Source: a virus
Virus record (IMG/VR): IMGVR_UViG_3300035099_000119
Coordinates: 1 to 24,899 of that record
Direction: 5' to 3' (one strand)
DNA: 24,899 bases
Of this stretch, positions 6,961 to 19,621 are shown piece after piece; positions within the stretch are counted from its first letter, which is position 1; each line of letters starts with the position of its first letter. The notes under the pieces were generated by a model. It saw only the letters and a list, made by a program, of their open reading frames with translations. It was not told the DNA's origin and searched no databases. The position numbers and the translations under genes were made by a program.

Positions 6961-8619
6961 ATGGAGGGCGCGGACCTAGAGGCGATTCTACTCGACCCAG
7001 ATAAGGCCGGAGAGTGGATAGAGACCTTTCTATCCGTTCCGACCGAGGAGGGTCGTATTGTGCGCTTCGTGCCAACGCCTCAGCAGAGGATGATGCTCAA
7101 GGCCCAGACAGGGCGGGACATCACCGTAAAGGGGCGGCAGACGAGGGCGAGTTCGCTCATCATGGCTCGGAACCTGCGCCGGATGACTACTCAGTACGGC
7201 CTGAACTGCGCCATCTTCACTCAGACCAACCAGATGACGCAGCTTTTCCGTGAACGCATCAAGCATCACCTGGAAGACCTGGCTCGGCACGACCTCAAGT
7301 ACGAAATAACCAGGGACAGCGATGAAGGACTGACCTTGGGGCGCATGTACAACCACTTTTTCTTCGGTTCTGCCGAGCAGCGCACGGGACCTCGCGGAAT
7401 CCAGACCGCCCACATCGTCCACTGCTCAGAGGTAGCCTTCTGGCCCGAAGATAGAGCCAAGACCATCTTCGGCGCTCTCATTCCGGCCTGTCCGCCCCCG
7501 CCGTTTGGCTGGTTCGACATCGAATCCACTCCAAACGGTGCTGGGGGCCTCTTTTACAAGTATGCGACCGACGCCCGCCCCCTGGTGCCCCTAAGCAAGT
7601 GGACTGTGCACTTCTACCCCTGGTGGTTGGAGGCAACCTACACCATCGAGTCTTACAGGGCTCTGTATCCTGTGGATGAGATGCTCGCTTCCTTCCGCGC
7701 CACCGACCAGGAGGAGGCGTTGATGCGGCTTCACGGCCTCACCCCAGGCCAGATACTCTGGCGGCGAATTCAGACCCTTGACCTGCTCAAAACGGGCAAG
7801 TATTTCGCCCAGGAGTACCCAGAGGACATAGCTTCGTGTTTCTTGACTGCTGGGGAAGGCTATTTTGCCGACGAAACCTTCGACCACCTGGGATATTACA
7901 AGGCACAGACCCACCCTGCGCCGTTTACTGCAACGGCGCTCAAGTACAGGGACTCGGAAGTCTCTTTCAGGGGCGGGCTGCTCCAGATATGGGAACCTCC
8001 GGTGGCTGGGGCCACGTATGCGGCTTTTGTGGACTGCGCCGCTGGTTTTTCTGGTGGAGAGGAGAGTGATGCCGACTATACGGCCATCGCCGTGCTAAAC
8101 GTGAAGACAAAGCACCATGTAGCGACTCTCCGCGTCAGGACGACCCCAGAAAGAGCCGGTGAGATGGCCTGCGCCATCGGTATGCTCTACAATGCCGCTT
8201 ACCTGGGTATCGAGCGCAATGGCTACGGCTCCGGCGCTCTGGCGAAGGCTAAGGAGCTTCAATATCCCAACCTATTCTACGACATCATCGCCAATCCGAA
8301 GAAACCGGAACTTGGATGGTGGACGTGTGAGACATCTCGTGATATGATGCTTAGGACACTGCGAGAGGCCGTGTTCGAGCACTCGCTCGTAACGCATGAC
8401 CTCGCTTTGGTCATGGAAATGGGCTCGTTCACCTGGGTGAACATAAAACAGCGCGGAGAGCGGCCATACAGGGCCGAGCACGCTAGCGGTGCCCACGATG
8501 ACCTGCTCTTCGCCGTTGCGGGAGCCCTGACTATTGCGCCTTACGCCCCTACGCGGATTCACTCATCCGCAGGGGTAATCAGAAAGGGGCAGGGCGCTCA
8601 TAGGCCCTGGATGAGATAA
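6961..8619 (+). CDS. terL: Terminase large subunit
   Basis: This 552-residue protein is the motor that pumps DNA into the prohead and cuts it. The ATPase part shows a Walker A-like VKGRQTRASS at residues 56-65 (the usual GK[ST] is absent, as in many terminases), the acidic Walker B region AHIVHCSEVAFW, and the coupling motif STPNG. The nuclease part shows three acidic sites in the RNase H-like fold: D358 in FVDCAAG, E418 in LGIERNG and D513/D514 in GAHDDLL. Length and order are standard. The ribosome site is weak (AGG), suggesting coupling to the gene eight bases upstream. Its stop overlaps the portal start by one base (TAATG). Confidence 0.95.
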   Translation: MEGADLEAILLDPDKAGEWIETFLSVPTEEGRIVRFVPTPQQRMMLKAQTGRDITVKGRQTRASSLIMARNLRRMTTQYGLNCAIFTQTNQMTQLFRERIKHHLEDLARHDLKYEITRDSDEGLTLGRMYNHFFFGSAEQRTGPRGIQTAHIVHCSEVAFWPEDRAKTIFGALIPACPPPPFGWFDIESTPNGAGGLFYKYATDARPLVPLSKWTVHFYPWWLEATYTIESYRALYPVDEMLASFRATDQEEALMRLHGLTPGQILWRRIQTLDLLKTGKYFAQEYPEDIASCFLTAGEGYFADETFDHLGYYKAQTHPAPFTATALKYRDSEVSFRGGLLQIWEPPVAGATYAAFVDCAAGFSGGEESDADYTAIAVLNVKTKHHVATLRVRTTPERAGEMACAIGMLYNAAYLGIERNGYGSGALAKAKELQYPNLFYDIIANPKKPELGWWTCETSRDMMLRTLREAVFEHSLVTHDLALVMEMGSFTWVNIKQRGERPYRAEHASGAHDDLLFAVAGALTIAPYAPTRIHSSAGVIRKGQGAHRPWMR

Positions 8620-10589
8620 TGGCGATTCCTGACACGGCAAAACTCCCCACAGACCGAGCCGAACGGCTCAAGACTGCCCTGGAGCAGAAGCTCATCTGGG
8701 GGCAGCGGTTCTGGAAGCCCCTGCACGACCGGATGGACTACTGGCTGAATATGTACCTCCTCCTGGACCTCGTTCAGCAAACCAAGCCCCTCGGCTTTCG
8801 GCGGTTCGTCTCCAACGACCCCAGAACAGGCCCAGACGCCGCCCTGTCCATTATGACCCGCAACGAGAGCTACTGGCGCATCGATATGCCCCCTGGCGTC
8901 GTGGACAAGGAGGAGCGCGAGCGTATTGGCCGCATCGAGCTTGCTCTTTCGGGTATCGTGGACGACATCGACGAAATGTTCCTCATGCGCGGCGATATGC
9001 CCCTGTGGAAGCAGGCAGCCTGGTTTGCCCTGATGCGCGGCTGGATATGGGGCAAGTTCCACGTCACCGAAGCCGCTCTGGAACTCGGCAGGCCAAGCCC
9101 ACTGCTGGCTGAGATGTATGATAGTCGCCAGGTGTATCCGAACTTCGATGGTGTCGGCCTGGCCGATGTTCTCATTCTCAAGTACACTACCTTGGCCGAA
9201 CTCTACAACCAGTACCAGGATGCCATGCCGGAGCTAGACTGGGACACCGTGGACATGAACGCCCCAGCCGCCAAGTTAGAGTTCTGGTCCAATACGCGCC
9301 GAGGGGTGCCTGGCATCAACGCCGTTCTCGCCGTCTATACTCCCGCCCAGGTGAATAGCGGGTTGATGCTAACCACGCCGGATGAGGTGGTCAGGACAGG
9401 CACAAGGGCGTGGCTAATTCCGCCCTACGAGCACGGGTACACGCCTGAGCAGCTTCCCGTTGTTGGCGTTCCCGTGAACGGCATCCCCATCAAGGCAAAG
9501 CCCTTCTCAGGGACTCTTGTCGATACCTCTTTGAAAGATAGGGCGGACCGGCTTGGTGCCAATCCACCCTCCTGGCATGACCCATCTGGTTGGGTCGCTG
9601 AGTCGGGCCGCTCTATTCTCGCCGCCGTTGAGGAGAACATTCCCCAGTACAATGAACTCATGGCGACGGCCCTTCAGCACTTCAGCATCGGCACCTATGG
9701 ACAGTGGGTGTTCAAGACCAGTTCGGGCGAGCTACCTGAGTTCGAAGAGGGCCTAAACGCCCGCATCCCACTGCACATCGGAGAAGAGGTGCAGAGGTTC
9801 GAGCCCGCACCTATCAGCCGAGATGCCTGGCAGCTTATGCAGGTGCTTAAAGAAGAGCGGCAAAGGGGGATGCTTTCCAGCATCCTCCAGGCTAGCTCTG
9901 CCTTCCAGGGGACGGGTATCCTATTCCAGCAGGTCATCCAGGCGGCCCTCAACGCCCTGGAGCCTTTTATGTCTGGGGTGGTCGCCTTCGGTGGTAGGAT
10001 GGGGTCATCTCTTCTGGAGCAGATGAAGGCGAAGAAGGACATCGGTGCTATGAGCCTCGTTGCTCGTACCAACCGCTCCTACTTCCGCATCGAGTTCGAC
10101 CCGAAGACTGAACTTCAGGAGCGGCGCTACAAGCCGCTGCCGGTGTTCAAGCCCTCCCTGCCTGAAGACTTCCTGATGAAGGCCCAGGTAGCCAGGATAC
10201 TCCTCGACCCGCGCAGGCCAATCGCCAGTCTCACCACGGTCCTCGACCGCGTGCTTCAGTGGGAAGACCCAGAGGGCGAGATTCAGCGTATCTTTGCTGA
10301 CATCGCCAATCTGGACCCCGTTATCGTTCTGGAGCGTGTGGCACAGGCTCTCGACGAGGAAGGGGAGAAGGAAATTGCTGCCCGCATTAGGCAGCAGGAG
10401 TTCCAGGCTGCGTTTGTCAAGGAGACGCAGTTTCGCCAGTTCCAGGCTCAGGCAGAGGCTACGCCTGGCCCTGGTCCAGAGACCGGCGCTACCACAGCGA
10501 CCGGCGGCCTGGGCGGTAGGCAGGGCCAGGGCCAGCCTGAGCAGGCTGGTGGCGGCATTGGCGTTCTGGGCGAGAGGGAACAGCCATAA
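8619..10589 (+). CDS. Portal protein
   Basis: This 656-residue protein directly follows the terminase with a one-base TAATG overlap. In tailed phages the portal is a dodecameric ring at one capsid vertex through which DNA passes. Supporting traits are the position, the length, an N-terminal helical region with many Trp and Tyr, a central part with the long helix 'ERQRGMLSSILQASSAFQG' and a following Gly/Phe-rich stretch, typical of the portal stem and crown, and an Ala/Gly/Gln-rich low-complexity C-terminus (about 600-650). No motif is diagnostic alone; the assignment rests mainly on order and overall character. Confidence 0.88.
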   Translation: MAIPDTAKLPTDRAERLKTALEQKLIWGQRFWKPLHDRMDYWLNMYLLLDLVQQTKPLGFRRFVSNDPRTGPDAALSIMTRNESYWRIDMPPGVVDKEERERIGRIELALSGIVDDIDEMFLMRGDMPLWKQAAWFALMRGWIWGKFHVTEAALELGRPSPLLAEMYDSRQVYPNFDGVGLADVLILKYTTLAELYNQYQDAMPELDWDTVDMNAPAAKLEFWSNTRRGVPGINAVLAVYTPAQVNSGLMLTTPDEVVRTGTRAWLIPPYEHGYTPEQLPVVGVPVNGIPIKAKPFSGTLVDTSLKDRADRLGANPPSWHDPSGWVAESGRSILAAVEENIPQYNELMATALQHFSIGTYGQWVFKTSSGELPEFEEGLNARIPLHIGEEVQRFEPAPISRDAWQLMQVLKEERQRGMLSSILQASSAFQGTGILFQQVIQAALNALEPFMSGVVAFGGRMGSSLLEQMKAKKDIGAMSLVARTNRSYFRIEFDPKTELQERRYKPLPVFKPSLPEDFLMKAQVARILLDPRRPIASLTTVLDRVLQWEDPEGEIQRIFADIANLDPVIVLERVAQALDEEGEKEIAARIRQQEFQAAFVKETQFRQFQAQAEATPGPGPETGATTATGGLGGRQGQGQPEQAGGGIGVLGEREQP

Positions 10590-10732
10590 TGGACAAGGAG
10601 TTTGTTCGCCGATACATCAGGGAGGCGCTCCGGCTGGAACGTCCGATGCCTGTGGATAGGAAGGCATCAGTTCTGCCCGAAATTGAGCGCCGGATTACGG
10701 GAGTGAGGAAGATTCTTCATGGCCGACGGTAA
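10589..10732 (+). CDS. Small basic 47-aa protein between portal and virion protein
   Basis: This short frame starts at the ATG that overlaps the portal stop (TAATG) and ends inside the start of the next gene (13-base overlap). The sequence MDKEFVRRYIREALRLERPM plus VDRKASVLPEIERRITGVRKIL is one or two strongly charged amphipathic helices. Tight overlaps on both sides make it likely to be translated. No family is recognised; a portal accessory or head component is possible only by position. Confidence 0.58.
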   Translation: MDKEFVRRYIREALRLERPMPVDRKASVLPEIERRITGVRKILHGRR

Positions 10733-11726
10733 CGAAACCCCCCAACCTTGGGAGCCTGGAGGGGAACTACCTCCTACGGCGACTCCGACCCCTGCACCGG
10801 AGGGCCAGCAGCCTGTTATGGCCGCTCCCCCTGCCGAGACCTCTGGCGAAGAGATGACCAGGGGAGAGCTTAGGCAGTTCCTCAAGACCTACCTGGGCAT
10901 GGACTTGCCGGTTACTATCGAAGACCTGTATGACGTGGCCAGCGCGTTGAAGATTCTGGACACTCAGCTTGCGGGGTCGGAGAAGCTTCCCTTCGTCGGA
11001 ACCATTATAAGTAAGCTCAGAGGAGCGGTGGTAAACACCCTCGTGAGATATGGACAGGAGTATTTCGGCAACCAGGGGCCACAACTTCAGAGCGCCTATA
11101 CCATCTTCTCTGAGCTTCTGCGCCCGCCGCAGCCTACTATCGAGAAGAGGCAGACCGCTGAGGAGTTCCTGAGCGACTTCAACCAGGGCTTCCGGCAGAC
11201 CGTTGAGGAGATGAGGGCGGCTGGGAAGATTTCCGGCAGGGAGGCCGAGTTTGCCTACAATATCCTCCGCCCCCAGTATCTTAACCGATACCTGGCCGAG
11301 CTTGGCAAGTTTGCTGAGGCCGGAGCAAGCCCCTTCGCTCTCAAGGAGGTCACCAGGGAGGAGCGCGGCGTTGCCCCTGGTACTACGGCTGGTGAGGCGT
11401 TGACAGCGGCCCTGGGAGAGGGCGTCAAGGAGCCCACCAGAATCAGGGAGGAGATTAGCGCGACGGCGGCTCCTGGGGCGACCGGAGCGGCGACAGCCAG
11501 CGCCCAGGTGACCAGAAGAGCAACGGAATTGCAAGAACAGGTCGAGAACATCGGTCGGGGCGTACCGAGGGAGTTCATTGCCCTGCCCAGAATTATGCCA
11601 ATGGATTTCCTGAAGAACCTGACCGCCGAGGAAATCAAGTTGGCCTACGCCGGTTCAGCGGAAGGTGGTGGTCGGGGCACCACTCCCGCTCCGGCTGGAT
11701 TCGCCTCTAGCGTAAGGAGGGTCTAA
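10719..11726 (+). CDS. Putative virion-associated protein (335 aa)
   Basis: Start ATG with a GAGG site ten bases upstream. Residues 1-45 are Pro/Thr/Ala/Glu-rich and likely disordered. Residues about 46-210 form a helical domain (GELRQFLKTYLGMDLP, DLYDVASALKILDTQL, TAEEFLSDFNQGFRQTVEEM), and residues about 215-335 are again Ala/Gly/Thr-rich with little structure apart from a short coiled-coil piece. This layout suggests an internal head or ejected protein. Its place between the portal and the giant protein, sharing Pro-rich linkers with both neighbours, supports a joint role. No homologous family is recognised. It is joined to the next gene by TAATG. Confidence 0.68.
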   Translation: MADGNETPQPWEPGGELPPTATPTPAPEGQQPVMAAPPAETSGEEMTRGELRQFLKTYLGMDLPVTIEDLYDVASALKILDTQLAGSEKLPFVGTIISKLRGAVVNTLVRYGQEYFGNQGPQLQSAYTIFSELLRPPQPTIEKRQTAEEFLSDFNQGFRQTVEEMRAAGKISGREAEFAYNILRPQYLNRYLAELGKFAEAGASPFALKEVTREERGVAPGTTAGEALTAALGEGVKEPTRIREEISATAAPGATGAATASAQVTRRATELQEQVENIGRGVPREFIALPRIMPMDFLKNLTAEEIKLAYAGSAEGGGRGTTPAPAGFASSVRRV

Positions 11727-11941
11727 TGAGTAGCCGTGGTGGTCCTAGCACTCTTGCCTATCTAGCCAAGCAGGCCCAGAACAGGGCGAAGGCGGCCTTG
11801 GCGCTGAAGATTACGCCCATTCCGAGCGGAGCGCCGCTCATCCCGAATCAGCCGCCCCAGCCAGCCAAGACTCAGGGTATTTCCGCTGACGAGGAGATGC
11901 TAAGGGCTGTGCGCGAGTTCTTGGGAAAGTTCAGTGGATAG
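11726..11941 (+). CDS. Hypothetical Pro-rich 71-aa protein
   Basis: The ATG overlaps the previous stop (TAATG), preceded by GGAGGG. The N-terminus is basic with an Ala/Lys helix (LAYLAKQAQNRAKAALALK), followed by a Pro-rich linker (PIPSGAPLIPNQPPQPAK) and a short C-terminal helix (ADEEMLRAVREFLGKF). It overlaps the beginning of the giant gene by eight bases. It may be a small companion of the giant protein. The function is unknown. Confidence 0.6.
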   Translation: MSSRGGPSTLAYLAKQAQNRAKAALALKITPIPSGAPLIPNQPPQPAKTQGISADEEMLRAVREFLGKFSG

Positions 11942-14900
11942 CTTCGAAGCCGGTATGGAAAAGTACCGGCAGGTAGAGGCCGAGCTTCAGCCCCCTCCTA
12001 AGCCTGGGCCGGTCTATACCTCCAAGGACATCATCCCGCCAGAGCCCGCTCCGAGGGCTCCGACCTACACTCCCCCTTCCCAGCAGGACTTTGAGCGGGC
12101 GCAGACGGAGCAGATTTTTAGCTACCTGCCCGACCTGGCTAGGGTGGTAGGGACTAAGCTCCGAACCGGCCAGTATGACCAAAATGACCTGCTCTACCTG
12201 GACAATCGCCTGGACTGGCTCTCCAAGTCCACCGGTCTGGACCGGAGGCACATCGGGCAGCTTTGGGCCATAGGGCTCAGTGAGGCCCAGTCTCCAGGCC
12301 GCTACACCAGCGGGCGTCCCACGATGGGTCCTGCCAGAGACCCCTTCGACATGGCGATGGAGGAACTGGCGGACAGCCTGGACTTCGAGTGGGAACCTCC
12401 TAAGCCTACTCTCGTACAGAAGGTTATAGGACAGGTTGGTGGAGGAGTAAGATGGTGGTGGGATAGGACGCTATGGAAAGCCATCCTGGATAATCCCCAC
12501 GCGCAGGCCATCCTGAACAATCCCTCAGTTCGGGATGCTCTCAAAGCGTCGGCCATCGGCGTGGGCCTTCCTCTGGTGGCCAGTGGGGGGTTCTGGGCTT
12601 CGATGGCTGGCCTCGCTCTCTTGCAGGCGGGCGGAGCGCCGGAGGCGGCCACCCAGATGGCTCTTGCTCCTCAGCTACTTCCTGGCCTCGGCAGGGTCGG
12701 ATTGAAGGAAGCAGCCGAGACCCTTCTGGGCCGCCAGTCGCTCAAGGCTGTGGCCGAGGCCGAAACAGAGCGGGCTGCGAACATAACCAAATGGGTTCAG
12801 GAGGCTGCGGAACTCGCGTCCAAGGAAGCACCCACGGCTGCTGAGCAGGCGCGCATCAACTATCTAGGCGAACGGGTACTCTCTGAGCTTGACCTGGCTC
12901 CGACGACGGAGGACCTTGGACGGCCCGTTGTGATGGGGGGCAAGGCGGGCACCCTGGTGGGCCTCCAACAGAATGTGCCCATTGTTCGGCTCCTAGGTGA
13001 GCAGGGAAAGGCTCTTCCCCCAGAGGCGCTGGGCGCTACCAAACCGGTGCTCGAATGGGCCGATGCCAATGCCGTGCCGACCAACATCAAGACGGGCACA
13101 TGGGCCGCCCTGAGTGCTGACCAGCCAGGCATGACCCCCAAGCAAGTTTCCGAGGCAACGAAGCGGCTGGTTGCTGACCTAGAGGCTGCCGGATACAAAC
13201 CCGTCCTGGGCACCGGCAAGTTTGAGGGCGTCGAGGCCCCCTCTGTCCTGGTGCCTGGTATGGATGGGCGGGCGGCGGCCACTTTCGGAAAGCGGTATGG
13301 GCAGAACTATGTCTTTACCAATGAGGGCCTGGTCAATGTCCAGACTGGCGTAACTACCCTGGCCGACCTGGAAAAGACAGAGTTTGGCTCACGGCTGGCT
13401 GACAACTACACAGAAATCCCCATAGGCGGTAAGAAGATACGCTTCTCCGTGCCCCTCACCAACGAGGAAAAGTTGCCGGAGACTGTCCGTGTCCTTGGCC
13501 GCCGAGGAAGCAGGGTCGGGGCTGGGGGAACCTTCCAGGTTGTAGGCCTGTCTGACGAGGACACTTACATCCTCCGTCCCCTCGGTGGGGCGGAAGGCAG
13601 CGAGTTCAAGATGGCAAAGTCAGCCACCGAGCCCTTCTGGACTCCCAGCGGGATGGCCCCAGAGGAGGTCGGCCTGTCCAGGGTGGAACGAGAGGCGGCG
13701 GCGGCTGCTGCCGGACGCCCCACGACAGTCTCCCTGGCTACCGTCGCTACGGATGAGGGGCGCACTATCACCCTCGCTGCCAACCGGATTGTCCGAGCGG
13801 GACCTGGCTTTGGCACCACGATGGCGTCCGAGGCTGCCGGTCTCAGAGCGGGCCAGGCCGTGGAAAATGCTCGACCCCTGGTGGTTACGCCTGGAGGCCT
13901 GCTGGGAGAACCGGTTGGGAAGGTTAGTCTCCACGGCACTAACTCTTCGGCTGGGCAGCTTATCATGGAGGGCGGGCTACGCTCAGGGAAGACCGGATTC
14001 GTCTTCACAACTGAGGACCAGACTACGGCGGCCACCCATGCCAAGGCAACGGTCAGAGAGCTTGGCGGCACTCCGACCGTCGTTTACACAGAGACTCCTG
14101 CCAGCCCCAATCTGATTTCTGCCGACGAAGCCTTTGCCATCCAGAAGGAGCTTGGTCTTCCTCGGACGGACGTGTGGCAGCCTCGGTTGGCTGAGGAACT
14201 TCGGAACCGTGGGATAGATGGGATTGACCTCAACGGACTGGGATTCCACAAGGCAGGCGACGTTGCCTGGGCCAATCCCTCCCTGGTACGCCCCGTCCTG
14301 GGTGCGCCAACGACCGGCTCCTACGAGGACCTCATCGAGGTTGCCAAAGGGGTCATGCGTGGAGATGCCCACGTCTTTGTCCTGAACCCCATTGCCGGAG
14401 GCGCAGGGGCAGGCCCATATAGTCCTACCCTGACGGCCCTTCTACGGCAGGTCAGCAACAACGCCTTTGACCGTGACCAATTACTGCTGTCCGTCTCAAA
14501 CGCCGCCAAGACGGTGACAATGCCGGAGGGCGTGGCTGGTAAGCTCTACAACGCGGCTCGCCGTCCATTCAATCCCTCTATCGGAAAGTACACCAGGCCA
14601 GCCTTTATTGCTGCCTATGCCCATAGAGAGATTGAGCAGACTCAGTTCGCTATCAAGATGCTTTTCCTCCAGAAGGCCATTCAGGAGGGACTCGGCCAGC
14701 GGTACTACAACCTGCTCCTCAAGGACCCCACAGGAAAGATTTTCCTCGACTTGTACAAGGGAACCATGCCTACCAACCCAGCCCGTGCGGACGCCGTTGG
14801 GAGGTTTGTCCACATGGTAGAACATGTGGATGACTACAAAGTTCCGGCGACCTGGCGGGAACTGTTCGAGGTTTGGCAGACCGGCCTGGATGCCGACTTC

Positions 14901-17597
14901 ACCCTGATGACCGATATGGGCTACCCTGGGAATCTGCTGGAGGCTGCCTACATTCCCCACATGGACTATGAGCCTAGCCCTTCTTTCCTGGATAACTTCT
15001 TCCGCGACAGGCCGATAGGCGGCGTCGGCGGGGGCGGGGGCCGCCTGGGACTCACCCGCGAACGCAAGTATCGGGGCATCGAGGACTGGGCCGAGTTTCT
15101 GGCAGAGCATGGGAGGCAACCCGAATATGACCCCTTCAAGCTGTACGCTCGCCGCCTGCTGGCGACGGCCAACCTGCGTACTAACCAGGTTTACCTCCAG
15201 GGTGTCATTGGAGCCTATGGGAAGCCGATTCCGAAGGGCAAGACTCCTCTGCTCGGCTGGCAGGAAATCATGCCTGGCGCTACGCCCCCGCTGGGGACCG
15301 CCCTCAAAGGCATCCGCGTGGGGCGCTGGCAGGTGCCGGATGAAGTAGCAGCAGAGGCCAGGAACCTCATGAATCCTGGTACTGAGGGCAGCGTTGCCCG
15401 TGCAGCGGAGGAGGTGCTGGATGTCTTTCGGGGCACCCTTCTGTCGGCTGACCTTTCTCCCTGGACTATCCAGGGGTACGCCCTCGCTGCGGCTGACCCC
15501 GTGCGCTTCCTGAGCACCTTTGCTCAGAAGGCCCAGCTTTCTCTTACCGAGGAAGGATTCATTACGGAGCTTGTCAACAACATCGACGCCTACACTCAGT
15601 TCGCTCGCGCTGGCGGAACGCTTTACATCTCCGCAGCGGACATTGTAAAAGGCTTCGGGACTAAGCGCCTGGTAGAGCGCATCCCAGGTATCTCCTGGTT
15701 GAACCAGATAGGCTACGGTCGCTGGCTGCCCATGATGAAGGTTCAGATGTGGCAGAGCATGACCCAGATGCTCATCGACCTCCAGCAGGAAAAGGGATTG
15801 TTCCAATGGTTCATCAAGGAGCTTCCTGGGCCGGTCCAGACAGCCCTCAAGAAGCTGGGGGGCGTCGAGGGCAAGACGGTGGAGGAACTGGCGCAAGCGT
15901 CGGCTGATATAGTAAACAATGTCGGGGGTGGCATTAACTGGGCCAACAGCATGACCCGACCGACGCTGGCGGGAAAGGCCATCATCCTCACCGAGGGCTG
16001 GGTGCGGGCTAACATGGGCCGCATCATCAACGCTACCAAGGTTGGCGACCCCAGGGGGGTACTGGCTCGGCGATGGCTATTTCAGGCTCTCGCGCAGACA
16101 GCCCTCATCTCCGAGGCCCTGTCCATTGCCCTCAGTGGCAAGCACGCTACTCTCGACCCCCGCGACGTGGACTTCCTGGACATTCAGGTTCCTGGAGGCT
16201 CCGTGCCCATCCTGCCGGGCAAAACCTATATTCGCACCGTTGCTCGCCTCATCGGGGGCAAGCCCTGGGACAACAGCGTGGAGGGCCGCGTCCAGGAAGC
16301 ACTCCGGTTCGGTGAGGGCCGCTTCGGTCAGTTTCTACGAATGGGCCTGGACATAGAGGCGGGGCAGGACTTCATGGGCCGGAAGATTGACAATCGAGCC
16401 CTCTACCTACTCCGCTCCGTCCTGCCATTAGCAGGCCAGGCGGCTGTGGATATGTTCTACGACCCGACCCAGCGTGGCCCAATCCCCACAACGGCGCAGT
16501 TCCTTGGCCTAAACTTCATCCCCACCCATCCGGTTGAGGCGCGGGATACCTTCATCAAGTCCCTCGGATTGGTGGACCCGCTCTCAGGCGAGCCGGTCGA
16601 GTCATACTTCGATATGTCCGAGGCCCAACGCAAGCAGTTTGATGAGGAGCATGGTGAGTATACCCAGGCGGTCAGGGAATGGCAGAGCCTCCACCAACGT
16701 CCCTCGGACGAACTCAACAAGGCGCGTGCCAAGACTACTGCGAAGATTGCGGCGCTGGGAAAGGCTTACCTGGGGCAGACGCTCACGCCGGAAGAGGTCG
16801 GGCTACTGGGCGGGGGCGAAGACTACCGGCGCATTGCCAACGACCGGACACTCTACGTCAAGATGCTCACCGGAATGGAGACGGAGTACTACCTGTCCAC
16901 AAAAGGTCTTCTGACTCCCGCAGAGGATGAGGAGCAAAGCACCGTCAACAAGGTTGTGCGTGGCTACTACGAGAAAGTCGTGGAGCCCTCTATCCAGGGC
17001 GGCGTTATCGACTCGGACATCTTCTACGACCTGGAGGGTCGCTATCGGGCGGCAGTACGGGAGGCGTTCGGGGATGAGGGCATAGCTGTCCTGGACCAGG
17101 AACTCGCCCTGCACACTACGGATGACCCTGTGGCTGCTGCTTACCATGCTGATGCCCGCGAGTGGGGAGACTACTATCGCTACCGGCGGTCGTTGTGGAC
17201 ACAGGCCAATGCTGAGAGGTTCGGCATCGACTGGGCGGCTGCTGGGCAGTATGGCAGTTTCAATTCCTACAAGGTTGCGGCCATCATCGCCACGAGAGAT
17301 GAGCTAAAGGGGAAGCCCTTGAATCCGGCCATCGGGATGTACCGTTCATCTCCCCGTGGGGATACCATCTATGAGCAGTTCGGAATCCGACCAGGCCAGC
17401 CTCTCACTGACGAGCAAGCGGGGGAGGTGGCGCAGGAGCTTGTGCGGCTGAACACCAGGAAGTACCAGGATGCCCTAACCTACAACACAGAAAATTGGCT
17501 CATAGAGCATCCAAACATCCTGTGTGACCTGACTTACTGGAACCAGATAGACCCGACCGAGAGGGTTAGGCCCTATCTAAGTCTTTGCCATAGGTAA
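11934..17597 (+). CDS. Giant 1887-aa polyvalent-like virion protein with ART-like region
   Basis: A single uninterrupted frame starts with GTG at 11934 (GGGAAAG upstream; an ATG at 11955 is an alternative). By eye the order is: Pro-rich N-terminus (1-60); helical part; hydrophobic membrane-like segment (about 204-240); a DUF3293-like region (about 388-465: W390, 'LSADQPGMT', 'YGQNYVFT'); a beta-rich part; an ADP-ribosyltransferase-like region (about 660-790) with LHGT (H667), 'GFVFTTEDQTTAATHA', 'GIDGIDL' and GDVAWANPSLV, where the expected final Glu appears to be Asp776; and a long helical C-terminal region (about 885-1887) containing 'LLSADLSPWTIQG' and further hydrophobic helices. This mix matches phage polyvalent proteins, proposed to be injected with DNA. 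Catalysis is unproven. Confidence 0.85.
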   Translation: MDSFEAGMEKYRQVEAELQPPPKPGPVYTSKDIIPPEPAPRAPTYTPPSQQDFERAQTEQIFSYLPDLARVVGTKLRTGQYDQNDLLYLDNRLDWLSKSTGLDRRHIGQLWAIGLSEAQSPGRYTSGRPTMGPARDPFDMAMEELADSLDFEWEPPKPTLVQKVIGQVGGGVRWWWDRTLWKAILDNPHAQAILNNPSVRDALKASAIGVGLPLVASGGFWASMAGLALLQAGGAPEAATQMALAPQLLPGLGRVGLKEAAETLLGRQSLKAVAEAETERAANITKWVQEAAELASKEAPTAAEQARINYLGERVLSELDLAPTTEDLGRPVVMGGKAGTLVGLQQNVPIVRLLGEQGKALPPEALGATKPVLEWADANAVPTNIKTGTWAALSADQPGMTPKQVSEATKRLVADLEAAGYKPVLGTGKFEGVEAPSVLVPGMDGRAAATFGKRYGQNYVFTNEGLVNVQTGVTTLADLEKTEFGSRLADNYTEIPIGGKKIRFSVPLTNEEKLPETVRVLGRRGSRVGAGGTFQVVGLSDEDTYILRPLGGAEGSEFKMAKSATEPFWTPSGMAPEEVGLSRVEREAAAAAAGRPTTVSLATVATDEGRTITLAANRIVRAGPGFGTTMASEAAGLRAGQAVENARPLVVTPGGLLGEPVGKVSLHGTNSSAGQLIMEGGLRSGKTGFVFTTEDQTTAATHAKATVRELGGTPTVVYTETPASPNLISADEAFAIQKELGLPRTDVWQPRLAEELRNRGIDGIDLNGLGFHKAGDVAWANPSLVRPVLGAPTTGSYEDLIEVAKGVMRGDAHVFVLNPIAGGAGAGPYSPTLTALLRQVSNNAFDRDQLLLSVSNAAKTVTMPEGVAGKLYNAARRPFNPSIGKYTRPAFIAAYAHREIEQTQFAIKMLFLQKAIQEGLGQRYYNLLLKDPTGKIFLDLYKGTMPTNPARADAVGRFVHMVEHVDDYKVPATWRELFEVWQTGLDADFTLMTDMGYPGNLLEAAYIPHMDYEPSPSFLDNFFRDRPIGGVGGGGGRLGLTRERKYRGIEDWAEFLAEHGRQPEYDPFKLYARRLLATANLRTNQVYLQGVIGAYGKPIPKGKTPLLGWQEIMPGATPPLGTALKGIRVGRWQVPDEVAAEARNLMNPGTEGSVARAAEEVLDVFRGTLLSADLSPWTIQGYALAAADPVRFLSTFAQKAQLSLTEEGFITELVNNIDAYTQFARAGGTLYISAADIVKGFGTKRLVERIPGISWLNQIGYGRWLPMMKVQMWQSMTQMLIDLQQEKGLFQWFIKELPGPVQTALKKLGGVEGKTVEELAQASADIVNNVGGGINWANSMTRPTLAGKAIILTEGWVRANMGRIINATKVGDPRGVLARRWLFQALAQTALISEALSIALSGKHATLDPRDVDFLDIQVPGGSVPILPGKTYIRTVARLIGGKPWDNSVEGRVQEALRFGEGRFGQFLRMGLDIEAGQDFMGRKIDNRALYLLRSVLPLAGQAAVDMFYDPTQRGPIPTTAQFLGLNFIPTHPVEARDTFIKSLGLVDPLSGEPVESYFDMSEAQRKQFDEEHGEYTQAVREWQSLHQRPSDELNKARAKTTAKIAALGKAYLGQTLTPEEVGLLGGGEDYRRIANDRTLYVKMLTGMETEYYLSTKGLLTPAEDEEQSTVNKVVRGYYEKVVEPSIQGGVIDSDIFYDLEGRYRAAVREAFGDEGIAVLDQELALHTTDDPVAAAYHADAREWGDYYRYRRSLWTQANAERFGIDWAAAGQYGSFNSYKVAAIIATRDELKGKPLNPAIGMYRSSPRGDTIYEQFGIRPGQPLTDEQAGEVAQELVRLNTRKYQDALTYNTENWLIEHPNILCDLTYWNQIDPTERVRPYLSLCHR

Positions 17598-17605
17598 ATG
17601 GGGCC

Positions 17606-17634
17606 TTGACGAAAGGCTTGGCCCATAGTAAACT
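17606..17634 (+). promoter_or_regulatory. Promoter candidate before the scaffold and capsid genes
   Basis: TTGACG (17606-17611, five of six to -35) is followed after 17 bases by TAAACT (17629-17634, four of six to -10). It lies in the 56-bp gap after the giant gene, with transcription predicted to start near 17642, just before the AAAGGAG site at 17643-17649. An overlapping short hairpin (GCCTT/AAGGC) is also present. It would give extra transcript for highly expressed head genes. Confidence 0.5.
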
Positions 17635-17653
17635 TCTCTTGAAAGGAGAACCC

Positions 17654-18403
17654 ATGTCACTCGAATCTTCGCCAGTCGGTTCGGTCCAGGTTGTTGAGCC
17701 CGGTTCTGCGGACGACCCCTTTACAGTGAAGCAGGACCAGCCCACGACCAGGCCGGACAATGTGCAGAGCCAGCCAGTGACGGAGGAGACCCCCGAATCA
17801 TCCGACTTGGAGTGGACTGAGGAGGATGATGCAAAACTTCTTGCCGAGCTAGAGGAGCAGGTTCAGGCTCGTGTGGCCGCTGCTCATTCCGGTCTCGACA
17901 AGAGGGTAGCTCAGTTTGAGAAGCAGGTGATGAGCCTCAGCGAAGAACTAGCTGCTGCTCAGAAGGCGGTGAAAGACGCCGAACGCCGGGCGGCGGCAGC
18001 GAATCTAAGCGAGGACCAGCTTGCGGTGCTCAAGGCCCAGTGGGAGGCCGAGGACCTAGAGGGTAGCCTGAAGATGAAGGAGAAGGCACTCGATGACTAT
18101 CTCCGCAACGTCACGGCCTACGACCTGGTTACTCGGTACGAAAAGTACGGTCTCACAGCCGAGCAGCTTGAAGAGGCTGAGTCGGTGGACGAAATGCACC
18201 TCATAGCTGAGCGAGTCAGGGCCGACTTCCTGGAGTCTGGCGGTAAGCCTGCCCCAAAGGGGCCTGCCGGAGCGAAAGCTCCCACGGACCTCGGCGGGCG
18301 AGCCCCTGGAGCGGAGCCCTTCAAGCTGGGCACCGAGCAGGGAGTGAAGAGCCTGGCTGATAACGTCCGCAACCTGTTCAAGCAGCCCGGCAACATTCTC
18401 TAA
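17654..18403 (+). CDS. Putative scaffold protein
   Basis: The start is ATG at 17654 behind AAAGGAG; a frame extension upstream covers the promoter candidate and is rejected. The 249-residue protein is acidic and disordered at the start (VQPVTEETPESSDLEWTEEDD), has a long coiled coil (about residues 55-120: RVAQFEKQVMSLSEELAAAQ and on), and ends with a Gly/Ala/Pro linker and a small basic helix (VKSLADNVRNLFKQPG). Scaffolds typically have this acidic, coiled-coil body with a basic capsid-binding C-terminal helix and lie just before the major capsid gene, as here. No protease motif is visible. Confidence 0.82.
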   Translation: MSLESSPVGSVQVVEPGSADDPFTVKQDQPTTRPDNVQSQPVTEETPESSDLEWTEEDDAKLLAELEEQVQARVAAAHSGLDKRVAQFEKQVMSLSEELAAAQKAVKDAERRAAAANLSEDQLAVLKAQWEAEDLEGSLKMKEKALDDYLRNVTAYDLVTRYEKYGLTAEQLEEAESVDEMHLIAERVRADFLESGGKPAPKGPAGAKAPTDLGGRAPGAEPFKLGTEQGVKSLADNVRNLFKQPGNIL

Positions 18404-18415
18404 AGGAGTACGAAA

Positions 18416-19621
18416 TTGGCTGGCAGCACTTCTACACTGCGGGTAGCTGGTTATCCGTCCGGCTATCCGGCAGAAATTGACGCCAACGTCAAGATTCGGT
18501 GGGTGGACAACCTGCTCATCAACATGAGTGAACGGTCCACCGACCTGCTCAAGTACTTGGGCGGACCCTCTCAGTTCACCTTCAATAACCCGAAGGTCGA
18601 GTGGGTCGAGGACGACGTTTGGAGTCGGCGGCCCACCCACGGCGCTCTTGCCGATGGTGAGGCCACCTCCCTTACTGTGACCGGACAGGCCCACCGCTAC
18701 CCTATCGGCACGCTTCTCCTGCACGTCGCTAGCGGCGAGATTGCTCGTGTGACGGCTATTGCCGACGCGAACACCCTCACCCTTCAGCGGGACGTGCCGA
18801 ACGCTGTGACCGAGGGTGCGTGGGCGACCAGCGACGAGGTTATCGTCGCCGGTCACGCTATGGCCGAGGATGCCGACTGGACCTTCCGCCCGTCTGCCAT
18901 CTTCCAGCTTCCCTACAACTACGCTCAGGTTCACTCGCTGGGCATTCAGGTCACATTCCGCCGCCAGAGCGTCGCCCTCTATGGGCTGCGCGGCACGGAC
19001 CTTGACATGGCGAGCGCCAATGCGGTGGCTGAGCAGTTCGTAGCGATGGAGCAGGAACTTGTCTCAGGGTACAGGTTCGCCGGTGCCTCCGCCGCCCGCC
19101 CTGCCCTGATGGGTGGCTTGCGCTTCTACATCAGGCTCGGCGGTTCGTCCGAGTCGGGCTCGGCCGTGACCACGAACTACAATTCGGCGGCCATCACCCG
19201 CAAGGACATCGATGACGACCTCCAGGAGTTGTTCTACGCCGTCGGCCCTGAGAAGATGGCACGGACTCTGCTGGTTCCGGCCTGGGCCAAGAGGAAGATT
19301 TCTAGCCTCTGGTCCTCGGCTGAGCGGCTCGGCCCCGGCACCAACGCTGCGGGCGTGGTCATCGACCGCTTCAACACGGACTTCGGCGTAGTTGATGTGC
19401 TCCTGCACACGGCTCTGGCGAAGAACGAGATGTACCTGCTCAACAGGGACATGATAAAGATGGGCAGCTTCGAGGGCCTTGGTCGGCCTCACCTGCTCCA
19501 GCTTGCCGCGCCGAGCGCGACTGGGCCTCGCGTCCAGAGGGCGTTCTATGCGGACGTGTCCTGCATGGTCAAGGGTGTCCAGGGTATGGGCTGCGGCTAC
19601 GGCTTCAGCACCACGAGCTAA
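18416..19621 (+). CDS. Major capsid protein, SU10/DUF5309 type, TTG start
   Basis: This 401-residue protein forms the icosahedral shell. It starts with TTG at 18416 behind a strong AAAGGAG with a seven-base spacer; the next in-frame ATG is some 35 codons inside, so TTG is well supported. The N-terminal half carries KVEWVEDDVW followed by a small beta-rich insertion (about 75-145) and then the HK97-like body, with 'YNYAQVHSLGIQVTFRRQSVALYG' features as in DUF5309/SU10 capsid proteins. The C-terminus contains 'ALAKNEMYLLNRDMIKMG', typical of the capsid A-domain edge. Order after a scaffold supports it. A separate scaffold rather than an N-terminal delta domain appears to be used. Confidence 0.9.
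   Translation: MAGSTSTLRVAGYPSGYPAEIDANVKIRWVDNLLINMSERSTDLLKYLGGPSQFTFNNPKVEWVEDDVWSRRPTHGALADGEATSLTVTGQAHRYPIGTLLLHVASGEIARVTAIADANTLTLQRDVPNAVTEGAWATSDEVIVAGHAMAEDADWTFRPSAIFQLPYNYAQVHSLGIQVTFRRQSVALYGLRGTDLDMASANAVAEQFVAMEQELVSGYRFAGASAARPALMGGLRFYIRLGGSSESGSAVTTNYNSAAITRKDIDDDLQELFYAVGPEKMARTLLVPAWAKRKISSLWSSAERLGPGTNAAGVVIDRFNTDFGVVDVLLHTALAKNEMYLLNRDMIKMGSFEGLGRPHLLQLAAPSATGPRVQRAFYADVSCMVKGVQGMGCGYGFSTTS

What the first reader, a model, noticed from the sequence alone, without database searches (positions are those of the whole stretch)
11934..17597. Giant 1887-aa protein with membrane-like, DUF3293-like and ART-like parts between portal and scaffold
One unbroken frame makes up almost a quarter of the window. 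The order of parts, hydrophobic segment, DUF3293-like region (about 388-465) and ADP-ribosyltransferase-like region (about 660-790), followed by a thousand-residue helical region with 'LLSADLSPWTIQG', matches the idea of polyvalent proteins carried by the virion and injected with DNA to counter host defence. The exact combination and the place between portal and scaffold may define a new subgroup. Domain names are by-eye calls.
Basis: partly seen in the sequence, partly recalled or inferred. Interest (0 to 1): 0.85.

Follow-up and report, generated by a model that had tools for sequence, protein, structure and literature searches.

The report
Giant phage protein with swappable effectors
A virus of bacteria encodes an unusually large protein, next to its shell-building genes, that most likely travels into the host with the viral DNA and carries two defence-disarming enzyme-like parts, one resembling enzymes that destroy the cofactor SAM and one resembling ADP-ribosyltransferases, in a slot whose contents are swapped between related viruses.

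Summary
The 1887-aa frame is real and belongs to a family. A giant gene (1496-2156 aa) sits between the putative portal gene and the scaffold/capsid genes in 14 other contigs wherever the DNA extends far enough. The C-terminal helical core of the window protein is homologous to 11 of them; three are linked only by gene order. The core is under purifying selection.

DUF3293 is confirmed beyond the sub-threshold Pfam hit. The AlphaFold model of that part is a confident ferredoxin-like fold, and its best PDB match is phage T3 SAM lyase. An independent profile comparison supports homology (score 28.9; best of 200 shuffled controls 16.6). The Gly, Glu and Gln that SAM lyases strictly conserve are near-invariant in DUF3293 and present here, with the Glu one residue out of register. 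The ART-like part (aa 661-791) matches ART folds and has His667-Phe691-Asp776, close to the His-Tyr-Asp of phage polyvalent ARTs.

In one pair of relatives the flanks are 82-88% identical in DNA while an internal cassette is wholly replaced: a slot for exchangeable effectors.

Best reading: a phage-type polyvalent protein, packaged, ejected with DNA, acting on SAM-dependent defences and host proteins. Packaging and both activities are inferred. New variant of a known kind.

The parts
11934..17597 (+). Giant gene, 1887 aa, GTG start
   Evidence: same-place relatives
11934..12083 (+). Proline-rich N-terminus (aa 1-50), also proline-rich in most relatives
   Evidence: sequence; relatives
12567..12623 (+). 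Weak hydrophobic segment aa 212-230; similar segments lie shortly before the effector slot in L004, L013-L016, L018, L030
13095..13346 (+). DUF3293 domain, aa 388-471, beta-alpha-beta-beta-alpha-beta, SAM-lyase-like; Gly426, Glu434 (one residue out of register), Gln457
13914..14306 (+). ART-like domain, aa 661-791; His667 (strand 1), Phe691 (strand 2), Asp776 (start of last strand)
14775..17597 (+). Conserved helical carrier core, aa 948-1887, includes LLSADLSPWTIQG (15438-15476) and ILTEGWVRANMG (15984-16019)
   Evidence: structure model too poor to use
6961..8619 (+). Terminase large subunit
   Evidence: PHROG phrog_2 E 1.1e-21
8619..10589 (+). Putative portal (656 aa)
   Evidence: position; marginal phrog_64
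10719..11726 (+). 335-aa helical, proline-rich protein X, same slot as a LysM protein in ctptF532
17606..18403 (+). 265-aa coiled-coil protein, putative scaffold
   Evidence: position next to MCP
18416..19621 (+). Major capsid protein (SU10-like)
   Evidence: PF17236 E 2.9e-30

Best explanation
The gene encodes a phage-type polyvalent protein. (1) Inferred: it is made late with the head genes and packaged in the virion through its long helical C-terminal core, near portal or scaffold. (2) Inferred: it is ejected with the DNA, the hydrophobic stretches helping it pass or line the envelope. (3) Shown at sequence level in relatives: a middle slot whose cassettes are exchanged between related phages. 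(4) Inferred from fold and conserved residues: in this phage the slot holds a SAM-lyase-like domain (DUF3293) that would destroy SAM, or the messenger SAM-AMP, so disabling SAM-dependent restriction, BREX or type III CRISPR signalling from the first moment of infection. (5) Inferred: the neighbouring ART-like domain modifies a host macromolecule with ADP-ribose. Estimated likelihoods: ejected effector carrier about 0.7; SAM-lyase-type activity about 0.45; active ART about 0.5.
For: Gene order portal - X - giant - scaffold - MCP is conserved in independent contigs and in the complete genome of Podoviridae sp. ctptF532. Core homology: W-L017 29% over 1049 aa; hhalign W-group to L004/L005 99.1%, E 1e-18, 689 columns; L004/L005 to the L013-type group 99.5%, E 2e-22. 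Core dN/dS 0.11-0.14. Cassette swap L018/L028: flanks 85% and 82% identical in DNA; 535 nt versus 421 nt between them with no similarity. DUF3293: AF2 pLDDT mostly 70-96, ferredoxin-like order; PDB top hit T3 SAM lyase 8bb1, E 9.6e-3, prob 1.00, also 7ock; BFVD hits include SAM hydrolases and a DUF3293 protein, prob 1.00. Profile comparison DUF3293 to SAM lyases scores 28.9 against 16.6 at most in 200 column shuffles. Gly 21/23, Glu 22/23, Gln 23/23 in cellular DUF3293 line up with G55/E68/Q94 of T3, the residues strictly conserved in SAMases, with the Glu essential (PMC7877911). ART: Foldseek hits to bacterial ART toxins, KptA/Tpt1 and ParT and to an ART-PolyVal-like phage protein; the W/L005 ART module is homologous to that of L013-L018 (score 35.8 versus 17.2 at most shuffled); H-Y-D is the known active site of polyvalent ARTs (PMC5512222). 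ARTs are often encoded near portal and terminase and carried in virions (PMC9503650).
Against: No virion proteomics. No match to PF18760, and no curated family match for the core. Foldseek E-values against the PDB are weak (best 9.6e-3). The SAM-lyase active site needs a trimer, which is untested in a 1887-aa chain; the Glu of the window domain is shifted by one residue, and Asn27 of T3 is not kept. ART Tyr is Phe here, and the third acid is missing in L013-L018, so some copies may be inactive. The core model is unusable (pLDDT 41).
Confidence: 0.65

Rival explanations
1. A structural ejection protein of the T7 gp15/gp16 kind: its job is to form part of the channel that brings DNA through the envelope, and the small domains are minor or decorative.
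For: Largest gene next to the head genes; long helical core; no recognisable tape measure or sheath among the tail genes of L013, L017, L011 and ctptF532; a homologous-position giant in a genome deposited as Podoviridae. Known ejection proteins diverge fast, vary in size and swap domains (PMC8954989).
Against: Position between portal and scaffold differs from the usual ejection-protein operon. It does not explain the clean replacement of one internal cassette. No sequence link to T7, P22 or N4 ejection proteins was found.
Confidence: 0.2
2. The ART-like and DUF3293 modules are catalytically dead and serve only to bind nucleotide or partners inside the virion.
For: Phe for Tyr in the ART-like part, the third acid lost in L013-L018, and the Glu of the window DUF3293 shifted by one residue.
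Against: Gly, Glu and Gln are all present in W, L005 and L004 despite great divergence elsewhere. His and Asp are kept in the W and L005 ART.
Confidence: 0.25
3. A MuF-like polymorphic toxin used by prophages to kill competing bacteria, with an immunity gene beside it.
For: Same genomic slot as MuF/minor capsid proteins in distant relatives with a related capsid protein; MuF proteins carry exchangeable enzymatic domains (PMC5576092).
Against: No MuF family match. Variable part is internal, not C-terminal. Only 8 bases separate the giant from the next structural gene, leaving no room for an immunity gene.
Confidence: 0.07

Closest known systems
Phage-type polyvalent proteins (Iyer et al. 2017, PMC5512222)
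   Same: Very large multidomain protein encoded among head genes, with an H-[YF]-D type ART and another conflict-type domain, plus long helical regions
   Different: No listed polyvalent domain model tried here (LPD38, ART-PolyVal) hits it; a SAM-lyase-like domain is not mentioned in that paper's main text (no hit for 'S-adenosyl', 'lyase' or 'DUF3293'); the helical core is a family of its own with a mid-protein exchangeable slot
Phage T3 SAM lyase / Svi3-3 / SAM-AMP lyase (PII-like fold; PMC7877911, PMC12255297)
   Same: Predicted fold, element order, and the Gly-Glu-Gln set that SAM lyases conserve
   Different: T3 SAM lyase is a free-standing protein made early in the host; here the domain is built into a giant, presumably virion-borne protein; activity untested
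N4-type virion RNA polymerase and other ejected giants (PMC12633501)
   Same: A giant ejected protein with an enzyme part and long helical regions for packaging and ejection
   Different: No polymerase domain; other gene order; no sequence link found
MuF polymorphic toxins (PMC5576092)
   Same: Same slot after the portal gene, exchangeable enzymatic parts
   Different: No MuF domain; variable part internal; no immunity gene
Podoviridae sp. ctptF532 protein UOF79210.1
   Same: 2156-aa protein of unknown function in the same gene order; homologous to the L011/L012 giants
   Different: No detectable sequence homology to the window protein itself

Membership tests
Phage-type polyvalent protein | Several disparate conflict-type domains in one polypeptide | tested here: met
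   DUF3293/SAM-lyase-like and ART-like domains in one frame
Phage-type polyvalent protein | Encoded among virion head genes of a portal-terminase phage | tested here: met
   portal itself called mainly by position
Phage-type polyvalent protein | Packaged and injected | not testable with these tools
   needs virion mass spectrometry and translocation assay
ART-PolyVal (PF18760) | HMM match | tested here: not met
   no match at E <= 1 in 13 records
ADP-ribosyltransferase superfamily | ART fold | tested here: met
   AF2 plus Foldseek: ART toxins, KptA/Tpt1, ParT prob 0.82-0.99 among the best ranks; residue ranges of the matches are not printed
ART of the H-Y-D type of polyvalent proteins | His in strand 1, Tyr in strand 2, Asp in strand 5 | tested here: inconclusive
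   His667 and Asp776 fit by position in the model; Tyr is Phe691
DUF3293 (PF11697) | Match above curated cut-off | tested here: not met
   18.1 and 23 bits against 25; profile from 23 cellular members gives E 6.6e-6
SAM lyase (T3/Svi3-3 type) | PII-like ferredoxin fold | tested here: met
SAM lyase (T3/Svi3-3 type) | Gly-Glu-Gln active-site set | tested here: inconclusive
   all three present in W, L004, L005; Glu in W is shifted by one residue
SAM lyase (T3/Svi3-3 type) | Trimer and cleavage of SAM | not testable with these tools
   biochemistry needed
MuF protein | MuF domain | tested here: not met
   no Pfam, PHROG or NCBIfam match

The most novel reading that the evidence does not exclude
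The whole DUF3293 family is a previously unrecognised branch of PII-fold SAM or SAM-AMP lyases, and this phage lineage builds one, together with an ART, into an exchangeable slot of a giant protein injected with its DNA, so that SAM-dependent defences are disarmed before any phage gene is expressed.
Probability: 0.35. Interest if true: 0.78.

Novelty: new variant of a known kind. Interest (0 to 1): 0.62.

Why it matters
It gives a testable function for DUF3293, a domain of unknown function found in bacteria and phages for which no paper turned up in the library searched. It also suggests that SAM removal can be delivered by the virion itself rather than made after entry, and it defines a family of giant carrier proteins in which anti-host cassettes are swapped like cargo, a place to mine for new counter-defence enzymes.

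Tried and rejected
Pattern scans with the window giant or with its core plus L017 found no further relatives; the capsid protein was the handle that worked. tblastn of the giant in 50,697 phage records: none. HMMs for ART-PolyVal and LPD38: none (the LPD38 search rang in no control either, so it does not show absence). Core structure model: pLDDT 41, not searched. I first read L004 as carrying ART then DUF3293 in swapped order; profile tests do not support an ART in L004, L017 or L028, so that claim is dropped. Weak tblastn matches of the DUF3293 stretch to microvirus pilot proteins (E 0.2-10) were judged chance. Deep homology of L011/L012/ctptF532 giants to the window core: not detected, so they count as syntenic only.

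Full report
Observation. The frame 11934-17597 (+, GTG, 1887 aa) is open and the largest in the window. The window is a 24.9-kb linear IMG/VR record. Around it lie a terminase large subunit (6961-8619), a portal-sized gene (8619-10589), a 335-aa gene X (10719-11726), a coiled-coil gene (17606-18403) and an SU10-like major capsid gene (18416-19621).

Family. Searching with the giant itself found nothing. Searching with the capsid protein brought in related contigs, and a second search with the giants found two more. Wherever the DNA extends far enough, a giant gene sits in the same place: 1932 aa in L004, 1896 in L005, 1941 in L011, 2021 in L012, 1572 in L013, 1554 in L014, 1496 in L015, 1615 in L016, 1951 in L017, 1598 in L018, 1551 in L028, 1536 (5' open) in L030, and a 5'-truncated copy in L003. 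A complete circular genome deposited as Podoviridae sp. ctptF532 has the same order with a 2156-aa protein and a LysM protein in the slot of gene X. More distant phages with a related capsid protein have a small minor capsid or unnamed gene in this place and no giant.

Homology of the core. The window protein and L017 share 29% identity over 1049 aa. Profile comparison links this pair to L004/L005 (99.1%, E 1e-18, 689 columns) and L004/L005 to the L013-L018 group (99.5%, E 2e-22, 372 columns); L011/L012 and ctptF532 are linked to the rest only by gene order. dN/dS is 0.11-0.14 in the core of close pairs, so the protein is under purifying selection. An AF2 model of the core was too poor to use (pLDDT 41).

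Cassette slot. L018 and L028 are 88% identical in DNA over the first 1.8 kb of the shared stretch (the portal-sized gene), 85% up to about aa 376 of the giant, and 82% or more after the slot. Between these lie 535 nt in L018 and 421 nt in L028 that do not resemble each other at all. L018 has the ART-like module there; L028 has something else. L013 and L030 show the same dip. In the window the slot is larger and holds DUF3293 and the ART-like part.

DUF3293. Pfam gives E 0.0041, below the cut-off; in single-record searches the window scores 2.7e-6 and L004 4.8e-4. A profile of 23 cellular DUF3293 sequences gathered here finds the window domain at 6.6e-6 and that of L004 at 6.6e-5. The AF2 model shows beta-alpha-beta-beta-alpha-beta, mostly at pLDDT 70-96. 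Foldseek against the PDB puts phage T3 SAM lyase first (8bb1, E 9.6e-3, prob 1.00; 7ock also prob 1.00), and the viral library returns SAM hydrolases and a named DUF3293 protein at prob 1.00. The tool does not print which residues were aligned; the length (82-98 columns) and the independent sequence test point to this domain. That test, hhalign of DUF3293 against seven phage SAM lyases, scores 28.9; 200 column-shuffled controls reach at most 16.6 and the reversed profile 10.0. The reported probability is only 42-55%, both profiles being shallow. Residues invariant in the seven lyases (Asn27, Gly55, Glu68, Gln94 of T3) meet columns conserved in 23/23, 21/23, 22/23 and 23/23 cellular DUF3293 sequences. 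Published work names the Gly, Glu and Gln as the strictly conserved set, the Glu being essential (PMC7877911), and Glu and Gln recur in SAM-AMP lyase (PMC12255297). The window has Gly426, Glu434 and Gln457, with Glu one residue out of register; L005 and L004 have all three in register. The Asn is not kept in the window.

ART-like part. aa 661-791 is modelled with pLDDT mostly 80-93, and PDB matches include several ART-fold proteins; viral matches include an ART-PolyVal-like protein. The module is homologous to the one in L013-L018 (score 35.8, shuffled maximum 17.2). His667 lies in strand 1, Phe691 in strand 2, Asp776 at the start of the last strand. The polyvalent ART family has His, Tyr and Asp in these strands (PMC5512222).

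Mechanism. Shown here: gene position, core homology, domain folds by prediction, conserved residues, cassette exchange. Inferred: packaging, ejection, SAM or SAM-AMP cleavage, ADP-ribosylation. Polyvalent proteins and virion-borne ARTs encoded near portal genes are an established idea (PMC5512222, PMC9503650), and phage SAM lyase counters restriction and BREX (PMC12255297). A virion-delivered SAM lyase would act before phage gene expression.

Limits. Few and shallow alignments; no isolate; Foldseek E-values against the PDB are modest; tail type of the window's own phage is not settled, although no tape measure or sheath was recognised in relatives.

Noticed in passing
L076:2851-3279 (also L077): Two viral contigs carry a free-standing 142-aa DUF3293 protein, a small and convenient test case for SAM-lyase activity.
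   Followed up: partly
window 10719-11726; L032:6014-7399: The gene between portal and giant is a LysM protein in ctptF532 but an unrecognised proline-rich helical protein in the window.
   Followed up: partly
L016 giant, about aa 1301-1400: An extra stretch absent from the close relatives L018 and L028 near the C-terminus, possibly a second variable site.
   Followed up: no
L013:16448-17044: HNH endonuclease gene among the tail genes, probably a homing insertion.
   Followed up: no
giants, ART region (window 13980-14120): PHROG phrog_2110, unknown function, weakly matches 5 of 12 giants (best E 0.0068); in the window the match lies in the ART region, so that family may be ART-like.
   Followed up: no
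L020: A distant relative of the capsid protein (28%) lies in Glycomyces arizonensis, a hint that the lineage may include actinobacterial phages.
   Followed up: no
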